Shown: positions 763-19,710 of the stretch, one piece after another
Position numbering within the stretch: position 1 is the first letter of the stretch
Layout of the letters: each line of letters opens with the position of its first letter
IMG/VR virus record: IMGVR_UViG_3300037502_001994
Coordinates: 1 to 20,698 of that record
Source of the DNA: a virus
Length of the DNA stretch: 20,698 bases
Strand: one strand, 5' to 3'
Translations under genes and position numbers: made by a program
The notes under the pieces: generated by a model
The model's input: the letters and a program-made list of their open reading frames with translations, nothing else
What the model was told of the DNA's origin: nothing
The model's database searches: none

Positions 763-1632
763 TCATTTCGACGCCCCTCCAAAAGCTTGTGCCGGAGGCT
801 CAACCCCAACCTGCCTAAGCTGTTCCTCAATCACCGGGCCGATATACTTGAGACATGCGGCAGGGGTCTTGAGGTCCTTGTTACCGGGCCTTATTGAGTT
901 GATTCCGGGGATGATGCACTGGCCCCGCTCAGCCTCGTCAGCCCGGGGGTTGCGGATGTATCCATATGAGTTGCGGCTGAGAATCTGCGAGAGTCCTTCG
1001 GTTGCCTCGAACACTGAGAAGGCAAGGCGGCGGAACATCGACGGGTGAACCATAACGAACGCCATGCGGTCCATCTCGATGGGCTCTTCCGCCCTCTTGA
1101 CCACTACCGTTGTGCATTGATCACCGTCCGAGTGGAAATCACTGGCAAAGCATACAGTGATCTCGCAGCGGAACCCCGCACCTTCCAACCCTTCGACGTA
1201 GGACATGACGGCGGCACCATAGTTCATGAACTCATCCACGTCATATGCGGCAGATCCAGCCCGCTGGATAAGCAACCGCACAACAGGGCGAACCCTGTCT
1301 TCTACCGGCGCAAGGTCCACCATTGAGCAGGGGTCACCAGCGGCAGCCAGCGCAGCGATGGGGTACGCACCGGCAACATCCATCACTATTGAGGGTGTAA
1401 ACGTGGGGGAGGATTGAGCAGCGGCTATTGCGGTCATCAATTTGGCGCGGCCTTCTGGCCAACCCCGCTCAGCCAAAAGCAGGGCGGCATCGAAAGTTGG
1501 GGTGCCTGAAAAGGTATCCTCTTCACGGCCCTCGCGCTTGCTTGATTTAGCGTCGCTGAGAGAGGGGTTACGCGAAGCCTTGATGAACTCCCCAAGGCTA
1601 TCGAAATGAGTCCGGTAATAGGCCTTTGACAT
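763..1632 (-). CDS. Conserved phage protein, possible degenerate vWA-like partner of the AAA+ ATPase
   Basis: This 289-residue protein lies 9 bases downstream of the AAA+ ATPase gene; its AGGAGG ribosome site overlaps the ATPase stop, so the two are surely co-expressed. A variable charged region (residues 20-45) is followed by a hydrophobic strand SIVMDVAGAYP (81-91), a helix, a G-rich turn and NYGAAVMSYVEGLEGAGFRC (137-156), then another strand EITVCFASD. The strand-D-x-x order and the 'helix, aging-G, strand' rhythm resemble a von Willebrand A fold, and CobS/MoxR ATPases are classically paired with vWA proteins such as CobT. However, the MIDAS DxSxS motif is not intact (DVAGAY), so the assignment is inference. 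It has no signal peptide or membrane segment. Confidence 0.6.
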   Translation of the reverse strand: MSKAYYRTHFDSLGEFIKASRNPSLSDAKSSKREGREEDTFSGTPTFDAALLLAERGWPEGRAKLMTAIAAAQSSPTFTPSIVMDVAGAYPIAALAAAGDPCSMVDLAPVEDRVRPVVRLLIQRAGSAAYDVDEFMNYGAAVMSYVEGLEGAGFRCEITVCFASDFHSDGDQCTTVVVKRAEEPIEMDRMAFVMVHPSMFRRLAFSVFEATEGLSQILSRNSYGYIRNPRADEAERGQCIIPGINSIRPGNKDLKTPAACLKYIGPVIEEQLRQVGVEPPAQAFGGASK

Positions 1633-1641
1633 TCTATCCTC

Positions 1642-2871
1642 CTATGCAACCTTAGCGATAACCTTGCCGCGCGTGTCGGCGTCAAGGCCCTTCCAGATCA
1701 CGGCGTCCTCAGTTTCGGCCCACGTAAAGCCAGCGGCCAAAAGCTTGGAACCGTTGACCGTGGCACGGGGCGACACGACATGCCGAATCTTAAGTTCATC
1801 CACTGCCTTGCGGACCTTGCGGACACGCTCAACCCACTGGATGGCAACCGCCTGAACCCGCTCAGCCGGAAGGGGTTCGATGGACCGGGGAACAGGTGCG
1901 CCCTTCGGTGCATCTGCGCCGATCATCGCGGCCTCAAGAGCCTCATCATAGGGCCAATCGATAACCGCATAACGGTCCAGTGATGCGGCGTCTAGTTGGT
2001 TGCGCCCGACATAGAGCCGATCCGCCCCCGTGCCGAACGTGTTCGCGTCAGCGACAACCCGGAAATCAGGGTGACGCTTCACGCACCCGTCCGGGAAATC
2101 CATCCAGTCATTTGCCAGCGCCGTGTTGAAAGCCAGCAGGGCACCGGGCATGGATGCATCCGTCTCGCCGAACAGGAACACCCCGCCATTCTCGAAAGCC
2201 TTGCGGAAGGCCGTCGATACAACCCGGCCCTGTGCATCGATGAACCCGGTCAACTTATACTCGGATGAAACCGCGCCCGTGCCATAGAAGGGGAGATCTA
2301 GAGCCTTGGCAACCTTCTCCACTGCGGTTGTCTTGCCCGAACCAGCAGGACCAACCAGCAGCACGTTTACACGCGCAGCAACAGCAGCAGCCAGCAGCGG
2401 GAACTTGTGATGCATGACGGATTCACCGCTCAGCGTCACGCCCGGTGCCGTGAGGTCAATGGTGACATGCGCGGGACGGGATGCATTGGCGCGGATCAAT
2501 TCCAGCACCCGGGCTTCGGAAACACCCCCGCCAAGCTTGCGGAGTAGTTCGAGTAGCGCCGCTGCATTGTCATCGATGCCAGCGGGCACGGGGTTGACCA
2601 GTACAGGTGCCGGGGCAGGTGCCGGGGTCATGGGTGAGGTCTCCTCTTTTTTGATATCAAGGCCTTGGACAATGAGCGTTCCATCCAGTGCCATGCGGGT
2701 GAGGTTGCGGGTTGCGATTCCGATTTTATCGGCGGGGATCTCAACCGCCAGCGGCGTGCCGTCATAGATCAGGCCAGCGTTTCGCGGCCCAACGCCGGGA
2801 ATAAACTTTACGTCAGCGATAAACGATTCGCGGTTGCGGGCGAAGCCGCCCCGGCTCAAGGTCACGAGCAT
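1642..2871 (-). CDS. CobS/MoxR-like AAA+ ATPase
   Basis: A 409-residue AAA+ ATPase. The start at 2871 (MLVTLSRGG) has AGGAG 8 bases upstream; the longer open frame to 3093 has no such site and runs into the previous gene. Residues 1-75 form a small N-terminal region with an IPGVGPRNAG turn. An Ala/Pro linker (80-95) leads to the ATPase core: Walker A GPAGSGKT (174-181), Walker B region VFLFGETD (231-238), sensor-1 Asn in VVADANTFG (272-280) and an arginine-finger-like LDAASLDR (293-300). The Walker B aspartate position is glycine (G235) while the glutamate (E236) is kept, which is unusual. Family members remodel partner proteins, usually with a vWA protein; the gene immediately downstream may be that partner. 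The substrate in the phage is unknown. Confidence 0.85.
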   Translation of the reverse strand: MLVTLSRGGFARNRESFIADVKFIPGVGPRNAGLIYDGTPLAVEIPADKIGIATRNLTRMALDGTLIVQGLDIKKEETSPMTPAPAPAPVLVNPVPAGIDDNAAALLELLRKLGGGVSEARVLELIRANASRPAHVTIDLTAPGVTLSGESVMHHKFPLLAAAVAARVNVLLVGPAGSGKTTAVEKVAKALDLPFYGTGAVSSEYKLTGFIDAQGRVVSTAFRKAFENGGVFLFGETDASMPGALLAFNTALANDWMDFPDGCVKRHPDFRVVADANTFGTGADRLYVGRNQLDAASLDRYAVIDWPYDEALEAAMIGADAPKGAPVPRSIEPLPAERVQAVAIQWVERVRKVRKAVDELKIRHVVSPRATVNGSKLLAAGFTWAETEDAVIWKGLDADTRGKVIAKVA

Positions 2872-2922
2872 GATGGGTCTCCTTTCGAGTGGAGTTGTAA
2901 ACGTGAATTGATTTCTGGTCAA

Positions 2923-2967
2923 CCGGTTTTCTTGCGGGATTTTTAAAACCCCGCAAGCCGACCGGCG
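2923..2967 (-). other. Intergenic hairpin in leader of the AAA+ gene (contains repeat copy 2)
   Basis: An 8-bp perfect inverted repeat, CTTGCGGG (2931-2938) with CCCGCAAG (2950-2957), has an 11-base loop, and flanking CCGG pairs (2923-2926 with 2962-2965) extend it across a small internal loop. It lies between the metallopeptidase stop and the AAA+ ribosome site. No U-tract follows on either strand, so termination is unlikely; RNA processing or stability is more plausible. Its right half is the divergent copy of the intergenic repeat (2938-2967). Confidence 0.55.
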
Positions 2968-2974
2968 TTTGAGG

Positions 2975-3568
2975 TTATTCTTCCCCCTCATCCTCTTGCA
3001 CAACCATTTCACAGCCCGCCGGGGAGGTGGGAACACCAAAGGCAAGCCACTTCTTGGTGGTCCGAACCGTGTAGCCCGTTTCGGGGCACACAAGCTTGAT
3101 CATGCGCGTGCTTTGCTTTTTGCGCTGAGAAGGATCAACCGCTGCGTGAGGATATGCGCCGAGCATTGGCAGCACCTCATCACGCAACCAAGTGTTGAGA
3201 GCGGCACCCGGCAAGGCCTCAGTTGCTTTTCCGTCGAGACCTACAGCGGCACAGAAAGCCTTGAAGGCGGGGCCGTGTCCGGCCTCAATCCCTACAGCAT
3301 GGTGCCCATATTCATGGCACACAATGCCAAGCGCCAGCACCGGGTCATCGATAAGGGGAGAGACGAACGTCTCGTGATATCCTGCGGCGCTGGCCTTGTG
3401 GGATATGGCCTGTCCGAGAACCTTCTTTCCGCCCCTTGAACCAACGGGGAACCCGCAGGAAATTTTGACGTTCTCCGGGAGGGAATAACCCTGCGAGGCG
3501 AAGCGCCGAGAGACCAAGGCGAGAGCATGCGAAAGCCAGCCCTCGCGTGTATCGTGAAGCTGTTCCAT
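2975..3568 (-). CDS. SprT-like zinc metallopeptidase
   Basis: A 197-residue protein with the zincin motif HEYGH (residues 85-89) and a downstream GHGPAF (97-102) whose histidine H98 is the likely third zinc ligand, the SprT/Spartan arrangement. Family members are metal-dependent proteases or protease-like proteins, some acting on DNA-bound proteins. The C-terminal part resembles the zinc ribbon that normally follows in this family (VCPETGYTVRTTKKW, then GVPTSPAGCEM), but only two cysteines remain (C160, C185), so metal binding there is probably lost. The start is fixed by a perfect AGGAGG 6 bases before the ATG. The upstream junction holds a long hairpin (3584-3635). Its location with the AAA+ gene suggests early protein turnover or remodelling, by inference. 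Confidence 0.75.
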   Translation of the reverse strand: MEQLHDTREGWLSHALALVSRRFASQGYSLPENVKISCGFPVGSRGGKKVLGQAISHKASAAGYHETFVSPLIDDPVLALGIVCHEYGHHAVGIEAGHGPAFKAFCAAVGLDGKATEALPGAALNTWLRDEVLPMLGAYPHAAVDPSQRKKQSTRMIKLVCPETGYTVRTTKKWLAFGVPTSPAGCEMVVQEDEGEE

Positions 3569-3583
3569 TTAATCCTCCTATTG

Positions 3584-3635
3584 TTTGGCGTTAACTAGGT
3601 GAGAGCGTTTAAACTCTCACCCGGTTAGCGTCAAG
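3584..3635 (-). other. Long RNA hairpin (~22-bp stem) between two leftward genes
   Basis: Bases 3584-3605 pair with 3614-3635 around an 8-base loop (CGTTTAAA). The inner arm GGTGAGAG/CTCTCACC is perfect, followed by one A/C mismatch at 3597/3622 and then a further arm with a few G-U pairs. The hairpin covers the stop codon of the gene ending at 3631 and finishes about 6 bases before the AGGAGG of the next gene. There is no U-tract after it, so it looks like an RNase III-type processing or stabilising element rather than a terminator. Confidence 0.65.
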
Positions 3636-4356
3636 CACGTTTCCGTTGCGGCCCATGGTCCACAATTGCAATGGATTTGGCCTTGATGCTTGATCCGCCG
3701 CACAATCCGCAGGAATTGCAGGTAGTGCGGAATCCAGCTTCCTTGCTTGCGGGGCAAAGGATTTCCTTGCCCGTCACAATCTCATACGTGCCACGGATGA
3801 CGCGAAATGTGCGATTGCCATTGGCCCATGCATCGCGGGCTTGTGCCTCGTTATCGGCGGAAATCATCATGAAATCAGGCCTTGCTTGCGCGGATTGCAC
3901 GCCGGATTGGTGCGTGTAGGCTGTATGGCCAGTAGCTTCGGAAATCAGGCTTTCCCATATGTAAGCTGGAACAGCAGCCGGGTCACCATATGTGCCTAGG
4001 CGCACCATGCGGCCCTTGCCGATTGCGGAAATCGCCTTTTGTCCGTTAACTGTAGGATAAAGCCCTCGATTGTATGCTTTCCACACAATGAGCGGCCCCT
4101 GCCCTAGATTGACATAGCACGAGCGGCGTTCCGCAATCTTGCGCTTTGGGTCATCCGTGGCTTCGCCGCGATGCGGACATGAACCGCAGATAGAAAAATC
4201 CGCGCCCGTTTTTGAGGCTTCGAGCGGATTGATATCCGCGCGGATTATGTAGGTCTGTACCATGTTTCCAGTTTTGACATTGCCACTCTTTGCGATGGCA
4301 ATGGCCACAATGGGCTTGCCATCGATAAGTGATGGGCCGGAGTAAATTATAGACAT
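3631..4356 (-). CDS. Cys-rich conserved phage/plasmid hypothetical protein
   Basis: A 241-residue protein. The N-terminal pattern YSGPSLIDGKPIV, the NVKTGNMVQTYII segment and the CGSC...HRG and RSCYVN motifs match a family I remember from phages and plasmids with no established function. Cysteines cluster as C57-x2-C60, C80, C201 and C213-x2-C216-x2-C219, a spread that suggests one or two metal or iron-sulfur sites. No membrane segment is seen. The start at 4356 has AAGGTG 6 bases upstream. It is the first leftward gene after the divergent control region, with an 8-bp hairpin (4384-4404) in its leader. Enzymatic role unknown. Confidence 0.7.
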   Translation of the reverse strand: MSIIYSGPSLIDGKPIVAIAIAKSGNVKTGNMVQTYIIRADINPLEASKTGADFSICGSCPHRGEATDDPKRKIAERRSCYVNLGQGPLIVWKAYNRGLYPTVNGQKAISAIGKGRMVRLGTYGDPAAVPAYIWESLISEATGHTAYTHQSGVQSAQARPDFMMISADNEAQARDAWANGNRTFRVIRGTYEIVTGKEILCPASKEAGFRTTCNSCGLCGGSSIKAKSIAIVDHGPQRKRA

Positions 4357-9511: not shown

Positions 9512-10307
9512 GAACGAGCTTCAGATTAATGTTGCAAAACTGAAAGGCAAGAAGGTCATGCTTGCCACTCCCATGTATGGTGGGCTTGGCAACACGATGT
9601 ACATGTCCAGCGTCTTGCAGTTGCAGGACCAGTTTTTGCGGCGCGGAATCTCTCTTTATCATTGTTTTATGATGAACGAGAGCCTCATCGACAGGGCGCG
9701 TAATGGCCTTGTTGATGAGTTCCTGACCCGTAGTGACGCTGATTATATGCTCTTTGTGGACGCCGACATCCAGTTCCGGGCGGAAGATGTCCTCGCAATG
9801 ATGTCCTATGAGAAGGACATTATCTGCGGCCCGTACCCAAAAAAGCACATCAACTGGCCTGTCATCATTGGTGCCGTGAAGAGTGGTATTGAGGATGTGA
9901 CAACCCTCGAAAGGCTTGTCGGGGAGTATGTGTTTACACCTCTTGATGAGAAGCCCTTCCACGAAGAGATCGTAAGGGTATCTGAGGCTGGCACCGGGCT
10001 TATGTTGATTCACAGGTCCGTCTTTGCGAAGCTGAAGGAGGCTTACCCGGAGAATTATTACAAGTCCGACGATTCTAAGGGTGGGCACTTCGGTAAGGAG
10101 ATGCACGCATACTTCCGCACTGAAATCTTTGAGAATCGGTATCTCTCCGAGGACTACTACTTCTGCAAGAAGTGGCGTGATTTGGGTGGGGAAATCTGGC
10201 TTTTCCCTTGGGCTCAGACCACGCATTATGGTACGTATGGTTTTCAGGGCTCCGTTGGGCACCTGATCGACACAATCCGTAAAGTTGCAGAGAGTGAAAA
10301 GAAGTGA
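9501..10307 (+). CDS. GT-A-type glycosyltransferase
   Basis: A 268-residue cytosolic enzyme. KKVMLATPMYGG (17-28) starts the nucleotide-sugar-binding fold, FVDADI (85-90) contains the metal-binding DxD motif, and SEDYYFCKKWRDLGGEIW (216-233) with the histidine of AQTTHYG (H242) matches the C-terminal catalytic end of family-2-like phage glycosyltransferases. It may glycosylate phage DNA, virion proteins or a host surface target; the sequence does not say which. AAGGA precedes the start; an ATG one codon later is equally possible. The stop overlaps the next GTG start by four bases, so it is coupled to the DnaA-like gene. Confidence 0.8.
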   Translation: MMPENELQINVAKLKGKKVMLATPMYGGLGNTMYMSSVLQLQDQFLRRGISLYHCFMMNESLIDRARNGLVDEFLTRSDADYMLFVDADIQFRAEDVLAMMSYEKDIICGPYPKKHINWPVIIGAVKSGIEDVTTLERLVGEYVFTPLDEKPFHEEIVRVSEAGTGLMLIHRSVFAKLKEAYPENYYKSDDSKGGHFGKEMHAYFRTEIFENRYLSEDYYFCKKWRDLGGEIWLFPWAQTTHYGTYGFQGSVGHLIDTIRKVAESEKK

Positions 10308-10855
10308 GTGAAGATCTTGAGGCCATGATGGCGAAGGCTCTTTCAGGGCAGTTCTTCTGGGAGCCTACCACATTCGCCTGTTACGGGGCTGGTGAACTTT
10401 CCGATGAAATCCGCAGGGCACAGAAGAAGTTCGTTGATCGCCCGAAGAAGACATACGGGGAAAAGACCCGCCTTGAGCGGGAAAGGATTGACGCCATCAT
10501 CAAGAGGAAGGAGATCATTGCTTCCTTCGTTGACAAGGATCTCTGCTCTGAGATCAAGTTCATCCGGGATTTTATTGCAGACCTACACAAGGTGGGGCCT
10601 CACGAAATTGCCGGTGAAGGCCGGATGAAGAAAGTTGCTGTGGCGCGGCACCATTTTGTGTGGTCTCTGGTTCGCTATTACCCGGAGATTTCCATTGCGG
10701 AGCTTGGGCGGCAGATCAACAAGCACCATACAACCATCCTCCACAGCCGCAACTATTTCGAAAAGGTTAAGGACTCATACGCGGAGATTGTCGCCGCAGT
10801 GGATGAGTTCATGAAGACAAACAGCCGGTTTAGCTCAGTTGGTCAGAGCGCCTGA
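10304..10855 (+). CDS. DnaA domain-IV-like DNA-binding protein
   Basis: A 183-residue protein starting at GTG 10304 (GTGA overlap with the glycosyltransferase stop). Residues about 108-155 (KKVAVARHHFVWSLVRYYPE, ISIAELGRQINKHHTTILHS) match the helix-turn-helix and HTT signature by which DnaA domain IV binds 9-bp DnaA boxes. No AAA+ domain is present, so it is a free DNA-binding module with a charged, helical N-terminal region. It could compete with host DnaA or bind phage sites. The last ten residues (from about S174) are read from inside the tRNA-Thr gene and the TGA lies in its anticodon stem, so excising the tRNA would remove the stop codon from this message. Confidence 0.7.
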   Translation: MSEDLEAMMAKALSGQFFWEPTTFACYGAGELSDEIRRAQKKFVDRPKKTYGEKTRLERERIDAIIKRKEIIASFVDKDLCSEIKFIRDFIADLHKVGPHEIAGEGRMKKVAVARHHFVWSLVRYYPEISIAELGRQINKHHTTILHSRNYFEKVKDSYAEIVAAVDEFMKTNSRFSSVGQSA

Positions 10856-10900
10856 TTTGTAATCAGGATGTCGGGGGTTCGAATCCTCCAACCGGCACCA
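10824..10900 (+). tRNA. tRNA-Thr (anticodon UGU), CCA encoded
   Basis: A complete cloverleaf: acceptor GCCGGTT (10824-10830)/AACCGGC (10890-10896), D-arm GCTC/GAGC, anticodon stem CCTGA/TCAGG with loop TTTGTAA giving anticodon TGT, T-arm GGGGG-TTCGAAT-CCTCC with one G-U pair, discriminator A and genomic CCA at 10898-10900. It would read ACA (and other ACN) Thr codons. It resembles alphaproteobacterial tRNA-Thr as remembered. It overlaps the previous gene's last 32 bases and ends 12 bases before the terL ATG. A tRNA can also serve as an integration site, but no integrase is in the window. Confidence 0.95.
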
Positions 10901-17472: not shown

Positions 17473-18384
17473 ATGGCTATTTCACGCGCACAACTTCTCA
17501 AGGAACTGCTCCCGGGTCTAAACGCCCTGTTCGGTCTTGAGTACAAGAAGTACGAAAACGAGCATGAGGCTATCTACGAGACAGAGACCTCTGAGCGTTC
17601 GTTCGAAGAAGAACTGAAGCTGTCTGGCTTCGGCACTGCCCCCGTCAAGTCGGAAGGCATGGCCATTCGCTATGACAACGCTCAGGAAGCTTGGACGGCT
17701 CGTTACAACCACGAGACCATCGCTATGGGCTTCTCCATCACCGAAGAGGCGATGGAAGACAACCTGTACGACTCGCTGTCCTCGCGTTACACCAAGGCCC
17801 TCGCTCGTTCGATGGCTTACACGAAGCAGGTCAAGGCGGCTTTCCCGCTGAATAACGGCTTCTCTGGTGGTTCGTTCCTGACAGGTGATGGCGTCACTCT
17901 GTTCAACACCGCCCACCCGCTGGTGTCTGGTGGCACGAACAGCAACACGCAGTCCACCCCCGCCGATCTGAACGAGACCTCGCTTGAGGCCGCTGTCATT
18001 CAGATTGCTGGTTTCAAGGATGAGCGCGGTCTGCTTATCGCGGCCCGCCCGCGCAAGCTGATCGTTCCGCCGGGTCTGATGTTCGTTGCTACCCGCCTTC
18101 TGGAGACTGAACTCCGCACTGCGACTGCTGATAACGACATCAACGCGATCAAGGTGAACGGCACGATTCCGGAAGGTTACTCGGTCAATCACTATCTGAC
18201 CGATGTGGACTCGTACTACCTGATCACGGATGTGCCGAATGGCATGAAGCACTTTGTTCGTACCCCGATGTCCACCTCTATGGACGGAGATTTCGATACA
18301 GGGAACGTTCGTTACAAGGCAAGAGAGCGGTTTTCTTTCGGAGCATCGGACCCCCTTGGAATTTGGGGAAGCCCGGGCGCCTAA
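17473..18384 (+). CDS. Major capsid protein (Mu gpT-like, HK97 fold)
   Basis: A 303-residue protein: an N-terminal helical arm (LLKELLPGLNALFGLEYKKY), FGTAPVKSEGMAIRYDNAQE, then ITEEAMEDNLYDSL, LTGDGVTLFNTAHPL, RPRKLIVPPGLMFVATRLLE and the C-terminal VRYKARERFSFGASDPLGIW, the pattern of the Mu gpT-like major head proteins. It forms the shell. AGGAG lies about 10 bases before the start. Codons in the first 271 positions never use GGA, GGG, AGA or CGG, but the last 32 codons (18286-18381) use GGA/GGG for five of six glycines and include AGA and CGG. This abrupt change lies beside the HNH gene. Confidence 0.85.
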   Translation: MAISRAQLLKELLPGLNALFGLEYKKYENEHEAIYETETSERSFEEELKLSGFGTAPVKSEGMAIRYDNAQEAWTARYNHETIAMGFSITEEAMEDNLYDSLSSRYTKALARSMAYTKQVKAAFPLNNGFSGGSFLTGDGVTLFNTAHPLVSGGTNSNTQSTPADLNETSLEAAVIQIAGFKDERGLLIAARPRKLIVPPGLMFVATRLLETELRTATADNDINAIKVNGTIPEGYSVNHYLTDVDSYYLITDVPNGMKHFVRTPMSTSMDGDFDTGNVRYKARERFSFGASDPLGIWGSPGA

Positions 18385-18409
18385 AAACGCTTGAATTACA
18401 AATACATAG

Positions 18410-18437
18410 GGCCGGGTTGACAAAACCCGGCCTTTTT
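18410..18437 (+). terminator. Rho-independent terminator after the capsid gene
   Basis: GGCCGGGTT (18410-18418), loop GACAA, AACCCGGCC (18424-18432), then TTTTT. A 9-bp perfect stem 25 bases after the capsid stop and 15 before the HNH start, so most capsid transcripts should end here. Confidence 0.9.
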
Positions 18438-18452
18438 GATACGTAAGTAAGT

Positions 18453-19097
18453 ATGAAAGAAAAATGCAAAGCAAACGAATGTTCAAGTTCTGTCTCCAAG
18501 GGAGGCTTTTGCAATAAGCATTACATTAGAAACAGAAGGCACGGCGACCCAAATGTGCAGTTGAGAAAATCGCCCGGAACCGCCACTGAGGAAGATAAAA
18601 AGCTTTGGAAAAAGCGTGAATATGAGCGCCACAAAGATGCATACAAGGTTAACGCTGCTCGTTGGAGAATTGAAAACGCAGAGCGTTATGAGGCGGTAAA
18701 AAGGGAATATTTTTCCCGAGAGGATGTAAAAGAGCGGTCCAGAAAAAGGACTAGGGAGTGGGCATCCAAAAACAAAGAAAGAAAGCGCGAGGCAGATAGA
18801 GCGTTTGTAGAGAATAATCGGGCTGTTGTCCGGAGCTACAAGGCCAAGCGCCGCGCCAAAGAACGGCAAGCAACACCCGCTTGGCTTACAGAGGCCCACC
18901 TTGAGGCAATCAAGGCCATCTACATTGAGGCTGAGCGCCTCTCAAAGGAGACCGGGATCCCATATCAGGTCGATCACATCGTCCCGCTAAGCGGCAAGAC
19001 CGTCTCAGGCCTCCATGTGCCGTGGAACCTCCGGGCAATTCCAGCCCCGGAGAACAACAGAAGACCCCGCATCTGGGACCACAACACCCAAATATAG
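18453..19097 (+). CDS. HNH endonuclease with N-terminal zinc finger, probable homing enzyme
   Basis: A 214-residue protein. Residues 5-23 (C5, C10, C20, H23) form a small zinc finger, followed by a long basic coiled, DNA-wrapping region (45-140). The C-terminus carries the HNH core: YQVDHIVPLSGKTVSGLHVP (171-190) and WNLRAIPAPENN (191-202), with DH174-175, H188 and N192/N201 as likely catalytic and structural residues. Freestanding HNH genes of this type are mobile homing elements. It is isolated by terminators on both sides, has a poor ribosome site (TAAGTAAG), and its first two thirds are AT-richer with AGA/AAA codons unlike the neighbours, all consistent with insertion. Confidence 0.85.
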   Translation: MKEKCKANECSSSVSKGGFCNKHYIRNRRHGDPNVQLRKSPGTATEEDKKLWKKREYERHKDAYKVNAARWRIENAERYEAVKREYFSREDVKERSRKRTREWASKNKERKREADRAFVENNRAVVRSYKAKRRAKERQATPAWLTEAHLEAIKAIYIEAERLSKETGIPYQVDHIVPLSGKTVSGLHVPWNLRAIPAPENNRRPRIWDHNTQI

Positions 19098-19121
19098 CCC
19101 GCTTCGGCGGGCTTTCTTTTT
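19096..19121 (+). terminator. Rho-independent terminator of the HNH gene
   Basis: AGCCCGC (19096-19102), a UUCG tetraloop, GCGGGCT (19107-19113), then TTCTTTTT. It overlaps the stop codon of the HNH gene, so the mobile gene ends with its own terminator. Confidence 0.92.
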
Positions 19122-19139
19122 ATGCTAAAATTCAAATAT

Positions 19140-19228
19140 CCCCAATACTTGGGCTTCCGGGTAACCCGGCCTTGAGAGACAGTCCCGGCTGACGCTTGCA
19201 GAGACTCCAAGGCTACATCCTGCAAGGA
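19140..19228 (+). promoter_or_regulatory. Folded leader with possible pseudoknot over the ribosome site
   Basis: The leader before the gene at 19237 holds the hairpins CCCAA-TAC-TTGGG (19141-19153) and CCGGG-TAA-CCCGG (about 19157-19169), and two interleaved helices: GCCTTG (19169-19174) with CAAGGC (19208-19213), and CTTGCAG (19195-19201) with CTGCAAG (19220-19226). The last arm overlaps the AAGGA ribosome site (19224-19228). If both interleaved helices form they make a pseudoknot that hides the ribosome site. Confidence 0.4.
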
Positions 19229-19236
19229 ATGTTTAA

Positions 19237-19710
19237 ATGGCTCGCACAACTTTTTCCGGCCCCGTAGTATCGCAGGCCGGTTTCATCACTGGCACTGACG
19301 CTGTCGCCGCTTCGGTTACTTCCGCCACCCTCGCCGTCACGGACGCCTACAATGGCCAGAGCATCCCGCTCAACCGCGCTGGCGGCATGACAGTCACTCT
19401 CCCGGCTGCTACCGGCTCTCAGGCCGTGTACAAGTTCCTCGTCGGCACCACGTTTACATCCAACGGCGTCATTCAGGTTGCCAACGCGACAGATGTGATG
19501 AATGGTCTTGCTTCGGTTGGTGGCACAACCGGTAGCGTTTTCTCGACAACTGCCACATCCGATACGATCACCATGAACGGCTCAACGACCGGTGGCTTGG
19601 CTGGTAGCTACATTGAGCTTGTTGATGTGTCTGCCGGTGAGTGGCTTGTCCGGGCTGCTCTTGTTGGCTCTGGCACTCCCGCCACGCCCTTCAGCGCCGC
19701 CGTTTCTTAA
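19237..19710 (+). CDS. Beta-rich virion structural protein
   Basis: A 157-residue protein starting MARTTFSGPVVSQAGFITGT and rich in Thr, Ala, Gly and Val. The segments NGQSIPLNRAGGMTVTLPAA (39-58), YKFLVGTTFTSNGVIQVANA and DTITMNGSTTGGLAGSYIEL form alternating strands of a beta-sandwich; similar small proteins are virion components in marine podovirus-like phages as I recall. The ribosome site AAGGA lies in a possible regulatory pseudoknot. Codon bias is as in the capsid genes. It may be a head fibre or decoration protein, with position and composition as the only evidence. Confidence 0.6.
   Translation: MARTTFSGPVVSQAGFITGTDAVAASVTSATLAVTDAYNGQSIPLNRAGGMTVTLPAATGSQAVYKFLVGTTFTSNGVIQVANATDVMNGLASVGGTTGSVFSTTATSDTITMNGSTTGGLAGSYIELVDVSAGEWLVRAALVGSGTPATPFSAAVS

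What the first reader, a model, noticed from the sequence alone, without database searches (positions are those of the whole stretch)
18286..19121. Codon-usage break at the 3' end of the capsid gene next to an HNH gene
The first 271 codons of the capsid gene contain no GGA, GGG, AGA or CGG. The last 32 codons switch abruptly: five of six glycines are GGA/GGG, with AGA, CGG and several A/T-ending codons. The HNH gene starts 68 bases after the capsid stop and is bracketed by two terminators. This looks like a homing event that replaced the 3' end of the host gene (co-conversion), or silent recoding of the cut site to make it resistant.
Basis: partly seen in the sequence, partly recalled or inferred. 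Interest (0 to 1): 0.72.

Follow-up and report, generated by a model that had tools for sequence, protein, structure and literature searches.

The report
Recoded capsid-gene end beside homing nuclease
Next to the main shell-protein gene of this phage sits a probable DNA-cutting 'homing' gene, and the last thirty codons of the shell gene have been silently rewritten, most likely so that the cutter does not recognise its own carrier; the same pairing recurs in many related phages and looks like a natural gene drive that carries its own protection.

Summary
The codon break is real: 0/19 rare Gly and 0/12 rare Arg codons in capsid codons 1-271, against 5/6 and 2/3 in codons 272-303; 0 of 3000 synonymous shuffles reach it. 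Relatives explain it. The slot between capsid and cement genes is empty in 131 of 198 distinct related capsid loci and holds a sense-strand endonuclease in 33: GIY-YIG, EndoVII, or an HNH family that includes the window's. Carriers lose codon adaptation abruptly at codons 269-271; empty relatives do not. The effect held in 64 unseen capsids found through the HNH protein alone (p=1e-11) and in phylogenetically independent pairs. Three close carrier/empty pairs differ 2-3% up to codon 250-270, then 15-23%, all synonymous. HNH and GIY carriers recode partly different codons. Best reading: free-standing homing endonucleases that target the capsid 3' end; carriers hold a silently recoded, presumably uncleavable target that spreads by co-conversion. 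Cleavage is untested. Against: an antisense HNH family in the same slot shows no recoding (11 of 11), 11 of 94 sense carriers show little, and relaxed codon selection within a driven tract is not excluded.

The parts
17473..18384 (+). Major capsid protein gene (Mu gpT-like head protein)
   Evidence: Pfam Phage_capsid_4 9e-11 and Mu-like_gpT 1e-9; PHROG major head protein 4e-22; annotated as capsid or head protein in related isolates
18286..18381 (+). Recoded 3' end, codons 272-303: rare Gly/Arg codons, mostly synonymous with empty relatives
18277..18309 (+). Codons 269-279: block in which HNH carriers differ most from empty relatives; inferred core of the nuclease target
   Evidence: per-codon tests with 81 HNH carriers; held-out AUC 0.94 for 269-279 against 0.57-0.68 in the four upstream blocks tested
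18410..18433 (+). Terminator-like hairpin between capsid and nuclease gene; part of the extra DNA relative to L002
18453..19097 (+). HNH/EndoVII-type endonuclease ORF (214 aa), probable free-standing homing endonuclease
   Evidence: PHROG 26577 4e-23, a PHROG matched by 7 of 7 members of the HNH family found in the slot; alignment with that family
18969..19055 (+). Conserved DHIVPL...GLHVPWNL...N region (residues 173-201), probable catalytic core
   Evidence: core residues invariant in 7 of 7 aligned members; that this is an HNH active site is inferred
19096..19113 (+). Second terminator-like hairpin; aligns with the capsid terminator of empty-site relative L002
19096..19266 (+). Right flank shared with empty-site relative L002 (78.5% over 172 columns): places the insertion within about 22 nt of the capsid stop
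19237..19710 (+). Next structural gene (annotated 'cement protein' at this position in isolate DSL-LC04), right neighbour of the slot

Best explanation
The window's HNH gene is a free-standing homing endonuclease whose target lies in the last ~30 codons of the neighbouring, essential and highly expressed major capsid gene (strongest footprint codons 269-279). Empty phages keep that stretch in optimal codons, so as DNA it is a conserved target. The nuclease cuts it in a co-infecting empty phage; repair from the carrier copies the nuclease, a terminator and the adjoining capsid 3' end. The carrier's own 3' end encodes nearly the same protein in different, often rare, codons and is therefore not cut. 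SHOWN: the link between sense-strand nuclease and recoding, its sharp start, its recurrence in many lineages and for several nuclease types, partly nuclease-specific codon patterns, and an empty site. INFERRED: cleavage, target position, uncleavability of the recoded allele, transfer by double-strand-break repair.
For: Codon adaptation (tail minus head): sense carriers -0.26 (n=94), empty -0.07 (n=131), p=2e-19. Drop starts at 269-271. 79 of 79 further loci retrieved by the HNH alignment alone have a capsid gene of this family, with the HNH 80-139 nt downstream on the same strand; their 64 unseen capsids repeat the effect, p=1e-11. 32 supported independent carrier/empty pairs: the drop goes with the nuclease in 17.5 and against in 0.3 on average (threshold -0.10; with -0.15: 15.3 and 1.8; with -0.20: 15.2 and 0.4). 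Pairs L226/L244, L058/L069, L001/L002: breaks at codons 251/271/268, all changes beyond them synonymous, similarity resumes past the nuclease. Nuclease-specific codons: ACA276 HNH 41/81, GIY+EVII 0/17; rare Arg284/286 GIY+EVII 13/17, HNH 22/81. Tail distance tracks nuclease distance given head distance, r=0.30, p=0.0002; control segment r=-0.02 (27 carriers). 127 marine-clade capsids in which no such nuclease was found show no drop. No intron match.
Against: No cleavage data. 11 of 11 insertions with an antisense HNH-like ORF (PHROG 3106/2255 in the 7 scanned) are not recoded, so a nuclease in the slot is not sufficient. 11 of 94 sense carriers, including GIY carrier L044, are not below -0.1; 46 of 131 empties are. 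Within the HNH family alone, tail does not track nuclease better than a control segment (p=0.06-0.15). Carrier tails match the empty consensus codon in 42%, more than the 36% expected from the codon usage of other genes, so mere loss of codon selection is not excluded. The structure model was poor and gave no PDB match.
Confidence: 0.8

Rival explanations
1. Hitch-hiking without immunity: homing drags along whatever capsid 3' end the donor had; inside this driven tract codon selection is weak, so codons drift to genome-average usage. The rare codons do not protect against cutting.
For: Rare Gly 41% in carrier tails is near the 32% of other genes of these phages, rare Arg 32% is below their 44%; close pairs show replacement-like tracts; L085 (GIY) and L089 (HNH) are sister phages with nearly the same tail.
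Against: Loss of adaptation is confined to codons 269-300, while divergence tracts extend further up in some pairs (codons 228-251). HNH and GIY carriers change partly different codons, and specific codons (GGG272, GGG277) recur across lineages.
Confidence: 0.3
2. Mutagenic repair: repeated cutting and error-prone repair raise the mutation rate at the cut site, as proposed as one option for yeast mobile introns (PMC5378118).
For: Divergence is local to the nuclease side of the gene.
Against: Changes are almost all synonymous and favour particular codons per nuclease type; nothing here measures mutation rate.
Confidence: 0.1
3. Regulatory overlap: the nuclease gene needs a promoter or RNA signal inside the capsid 3' end, which forces the codon changes.
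For: Nuclease genes lie close behind the capsid stop (aligned start 80-139 nt after it).
Against: In the window, promoter-like sites in the region are at chance level (2 found, 2.0 expected) and none lies in the tail; a terminator-like hairpin separates tail and nuclease. Codon changes differ between nuclease types.
Confidence: 0.05
4. Artefact: chimeric metagenome contig, or a general feature of capsid gene ends.
For: The window is a single virus record of 20,698 bases, possibly a fragment.
Against: The pattern recurs on dozens of contigs from many samples; empty relatives and 127 marine-clade capsids lack it.
Confidence: 0.02

Closest known systems
Intronless homing by free-standing T4 endonucleases (seg and mob genes); segD beside T4 gene 23 (passages of PMC2988022 seen)
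   Same: Free-standing nuclease genes beside conserved essential genes, co-conversion of flanks, marker exclusion in mixed infection; segD lies between the major capsid and vertex protein genes.
   Different: Here several unrelated nuclease types use one slot, and natural populations show a synonymous recoding signature; segD is antisense and called uncharacterised there; no cutting data here.
Skunavirus HNH endonucleases (PMC12724721, abstract and two passages)
   Same: Free-standing HNH genes; the text says the recipient is assumed to become resistant because the cut sequence is replaced by the donor's.
   Different: Other phages; the main text has no occurrence of 'codon', 'synonymous', 'silent' or 'capsid'.
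F-CphI, EndoVII-type homing endonuclease of cyanophage S-PM2 (PMC6083498, search listing only)
   Same: EndoVII-type free-standing homing endonuclease; the slot HNH family matches PHROG 'endonuclease VII'.
   Different: Different phage and target gene (target gene recalled, not read).
gp210 of phage PhiPA3 against PhiKZ gp178 (PMC11620839, abstract start and one passage)
   Same: Nuclease aimed at a gene that a competing phage needs; a laboratory-recoded copy of that gene escapes recognition and restores viability.
   Different: Intron-encoded; recoding was artificial there, natural here.
Elevated SNP density beside mobile introns in yeast mitochondria (PMC5378118, parts of two sections read)
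   Same: Excess polymorphism in coding sequence next to a mobile nuclease element, absent beside immobile ones.
   Different: Introns; a SNP gradient; no codon-adaptation loss or nuclease-specific codon pattern in the parts read.
Synthetic home-and-rescue gene drive HomeR (PMC7968924, passages)
   Same: Design: target the 3' coding end of an essential gene, carry a re-coded 22 or 27 codon end and a foreign 3' UTR, then the drive.
   Different: Engineered CRISPR in flies; here natural, about 32 codons, phage, a single nuclease gene.
HEGs near essential phage genes (PMC10448857, abstract and one section)
   Same: Phage homing nucleases cluster near terminase, ribonucleotide reductase and capsid genes.
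   Different: That section does not treat codon usage of the neighbouring gene.

Membership tests
Free-standing (intronless) homing endonuclease | ORF with a homing-nuclease catalytic domain | tested here: met
   Slot ORFs: Pfam GIY-YIG above cut-off in 7 of the 15 ORFs scanned, Endonuclease_7 in 1; HNH family: PHROG 'endonuclease VII' in 7 of 7 members, phrog_144 'HNH endonuclease' in 3 of 7. For the window ORF itself only PHROG 26577 (unknown function) and a weak HNH hit (E 0.005); Pfam gave none.
Free-standing (intronless) homing endonuclease | Not inside an intron or intein | tested here: met
   Capsid ORF ends before the nuclease; Rfam finds only a tRNA in the window.
Free-standing (intronless) homing endonuclease | Empty alleles exist in close relatives at the same site | tested here: met
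   L002 for the window; L244, L069 for others; 131 empty loci; 9 of 9 isolate records viewed show no annotated insert.
Free-standing (intronless) homing endonuclease | Co-conversion of flanking sequence | tested here: inconclusive
   Sharp tracts in three close pairs and tail-nuclease covariation over all families, but not within the HNH family.
Free-standing (intronless) homing endonuclease | Cuts the empty allele, not its own | not testable with these tools
   Needs biochemistry.
Free-standing (intronless) homing endonuclease | One-way inheritance in mixed infection | not testable with these tools
   Needs phage crosses.
Group I intron-encoded endonuclease | Self-splicing intron interrupting the host gene | tested here: not met
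   Capsid reading frame is intact and no intron family matches.

The most novel reading that the evidence does not exclude
The capsid 3' end of this phage clade is a natural home-and-rescue drive site: unrelated nucleases (HNH, at least two GIY-YIG groups, EndoVII) have repeatedly become linked to a recoded, cut-proof version of the same ~30 codons plus their own terminator. Codon optimisation of the most expressed gene keeps the target constant and so creates the niche, and rare codons are the price of immunity.
Probability: 0.45. Interest if true: 0.78.

Novelty: new variant of a known kind. Interest (0 to 1): 0.64.

Why it matters
Homing endonucleases beside phage genes are known mostly one enzyme at a time. 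Here a natural population of phages allows the target to be read from synonymous sites, shows how a selfish nuclease reshapes the codons of its most conserved neighbour, and offers a natural counterpart to engineered drives that protect themselves with a recoded gene end. The signature (local loss of codon adaptation next to a slot) could be scanned for across phages to find homing nucleases and their targets.

Tried and rejected
Tried without result: single-protein search for the window's HNH in viral contigs (none confirmed); PF01844 on the window (none); profile search of PDB sequences (none); structure prediction and Foldseek (uninformative); NCBIfam (searches failed on coordinates and were not repeated); HNH relatives in 28 bacterial genome loci have no such capsid beside them at a meaningful E-value.

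Rejected: group I intron, assembly artefact (recurs on dozens of contigs), general 3'-end effect (marine-clade capsids), passive effect of any insertion (11 antisense-HNH and 3 other insertions are not recoded).

Corrected on the way: my 'non-endonuclease insertion' class turned out to hold an antisense HNH-like ORF in 11 of 14; of the rest L146 is methyltransferase-like, L232 and L245 are undetermined. L135 and L085 were relabelled as GIY-YIG after reading their ORFs, when L135's strong drop had already been seen; the first test, before relabelling, gave p=3.5e-13. The three-codon marker was picked after seeing the data; the codon-adaptation thresholds are the fairer test. Empties nearest to carriers are not significantly more recoded than other empties (p=0.14). 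An HNH-versus-NUMOD3 codon-pattern test on the first set was borderline in the tail (p=0.06) and not clearly different from the other blocks tested (p=0.07-0.25) before the script failed after five of nine blocks.

Rows dropped before counts: 17 loci too short downstream, 3 uncertain, 1 without stop, and duplicates of identical capsids; 4 of 98 carriers with short heads left out of the counts; 1 of 65 new HNH capsids left out of the test. In the marine set two loci had no stop, three were too short to see the slot, and only forward ORFs similar to my nuclease seeds were sought. Slot ORFs were classed by me: those of 15 of the first 33 carriers (window included) were scanned with Pfam, the rest judged by reading and blastp similarity.

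Full report
OBSERVATION. The capsid gene of the window (17473-18384) has no GGA, GGG, AGA, AGG, CGA or CGG among its first 271 codons (19 Gly, 12 Arg); in codons 272-303 five of six Gly and two of three Arg are of that kind. No synonymous shuffle of 3000 reaches the observed break when all breakpoints are scanned. The nuclease ORF starts 68 bases after the stop. It is preceded and followed by terminator-like hairpins. The region is a phage structural operon: terminase, portal, GroES-like, capsid, cement-position gene.

RELATIVES. Four capsid queries (window, L073, L037, L063) gave 259 loci and, with the window, 198 distinct capsid genes. Between capsid and the next structural gene lies a slot. 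It is empty in 131; it holds a sense-strand endonuclease in 33: 12 GIY-YIG, 4 LEM-3-like GIY-YIG (the two scanned are below the Pfam cut-off), 1 EndoVII, 15 of an HNH family that begins 'PKTR..A', and the window's HNH, which shares that family's C-terminal core (L085 and L135 moved to GIY-YIG after reading). 14 have other inserts, 17 are too short to tell, 3 uncertain.

CODON ADAPTATION. With weights taken from the first 240 codons of empty relatives, carriers fall at codons 271-300 and empties do not. Over all data the tail-minus-head value is -0.26 for 94 sense carriers and -0.07 for 131 empties (p=2e-19); 83 of 94 carriers and 46 of 131 empties are below -0.1. A wider set of 127 capsids, mostly of marine clades, in which no nuclease similar to the seeds was found, averages -0.03.

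OUT-OF-SAMPLE. The HNH family alignment alone, without capsid information, retrieved 80 loci in viral contigs. All 79 new ones carry a capsid gene of this family on the same contig, with the HNH 80-139 nt downstream on the same strand; the list is the best 80 of 592 confirmed, so more distant members may live elsewhere, as 28 bacterial loci do. Of these, 64 capsids not seen before average -0.215 against -0.066 (p=1e-11). A codon model for eight columns of codons 269-279, trained on 15 HNH carriers without the window, separates 65 held-out carriers from empties with AUC 0.94; all columns of that block give 0.94, other blocks 0.57-0.75. The empties served for training too.

PHYLOGENY. On a tree of capsid codons 1-255 the carrier/empty state changes 44 times; in 32 independent well-supported pairs the drop (below -0.10) goes with the nuclease in 17.5 and against it in 0.3 on average; at -0.15 it is 15.3 and 1.8, at -0.20 15.2 and 0.4.

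TRACTS. Compared with the nearest empty relative, synonymous difference in carriers is 0.28 in the head and 0.50 in the tail (31 of 33 higher in the tail); for empty-empty pairs 0.32 and 0.38 (86 of 131). In the three closest pairs (L226/L244, L058/L069, L001/L002) divergence jumps from 2-3% to 15-23% at codon 251, 271 and 268, with no amino-acid change beyond the break, and similarity resumes after the nuclease at 88-95%. The window against L002 is less clean: best single change point codon 228, three amino-acid changes in the tail. Its insertion lies within about 22 nt of the capsid stop: L002's terminator and leader reappear right after the HNH stop.

WHICH CODONS. With 81 HNH carriers, differences from empties begin at codon 269 (TCA) and peak at 272 (GGG/GGA 56/76 against 23/125 Gly) and 277 (GGG 40/81 against 5/131), with 273, 275, 276 and 279 also changed; codons 256-268 show no p below 0.03. 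GIY and EndoVII carriers share GGG272 but also recode Arg284/286 (13/17; HNH 22/81; empty 19/131) and never use ACA276 (0/17; HNH 41/81). Tail distance follows nuclease distance across families after allowing for head distance (r=0.30, p=0.0002; control segment -0.02), but not within the HNH family.

RESULTS AGAINST. Eleven inserts with an antisense HNH-like ORF (PHROG 3106/2255 in the 7 scanned) leave the capsid end untouched (mean +0.01), so orientation or target matters and a nuclease in the slot does not suffice; I had first called these 'non-endonuclease'. L044 carries a GIY-YIG without rare codons, although its tail is synonymously divergent (0.55 against 0.39). Ten HNH carriers show little drop. 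Some empties are recoded (L214, L049, L108), which a cycle of gain and loss would produce but which does not prove it. Simulated tails with the usage of other genes match the empty consensus less (36%) than real carrier tails do (42%), so the data do not by themselves demand selection beyond lost codon preference; the focal position and the nuclease-specific codons are what favour protection.

MECHANISM. Best reading: homing endonucleases aimed at the capsid 3' end, with a carrier allele that is protected by silent recoding and spread by co-conversion. This is intronless homing as known from T4 (PMC2988022, passages), in a form that resembles engineered home-and-rescue drives, which deliberately target the 3' coding end of an essential gene and carry a re-coded 22 or 27 codon end and a foreign 3' UTR (PMC7968924, passages). 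In PhiPA3/PhiKZ, a laboratory-recoded target gene avoided recognition and restored phage viability (PMC11620839, passage). Four library searches combining homing endonuclease with synonymous, silent, codon or capsid terms listed no paper whose title or abstract start reports natural synonymous recoding beside a free-standing phage nuclease; the library lacks most subscription papers.

VERDICT.

Noticed in passing
L030, L084, L086, L114, L138, L150, L230, L234, L243, L255, L257 (slot after capsid): A second kind of cargo in the same slot: an antisense small HNH-like ORF (PHROG 3106/2255 in the 7 scanned), often with acidic D/E-rich ORFs or an HslV-like peptidase ORF, without capsid recoding.
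   Followed up: partly
L085 and L089: Sister phages (95% capsid head identity) with nearly the same recoded tail but different nucleases (GIY-YIG and HNH): apparent turnover of the enzyme at one site.
   Followed up: partly
L049, L108, L214: Recoded capsid ends without a nuclease: candidates for immune alleles that lost or never had the enzyme.
   Followed up: partly
window 19114-19236: Leader of the cement-position gene is conserved in sequence between the window and L002 (ACTTGGG and CTTGCAGAGACT motifs); possible RNA element.
   Followed up: no
window 10824-10897: tRNA gene overlapping the end of an upstream ORF just before the terminase gene.
   Followed up: no
window 10304-10855: ORF whose C-terminal part resembles DnaA domain IV by eye (recalled motif, no PHROG hit).
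   Followed up: no
window 763-4356, minus strand: Block with an ATPase (PHROG 249 'porphyrin biosynthesis', 4e-52) and neighbours of unknown function.
   Followed up: no
L146:3976-4653: Methyltransferase-like ORF in the slot (Pfam Methyltransf_24) instead of a nuclease.
   Followed up: no
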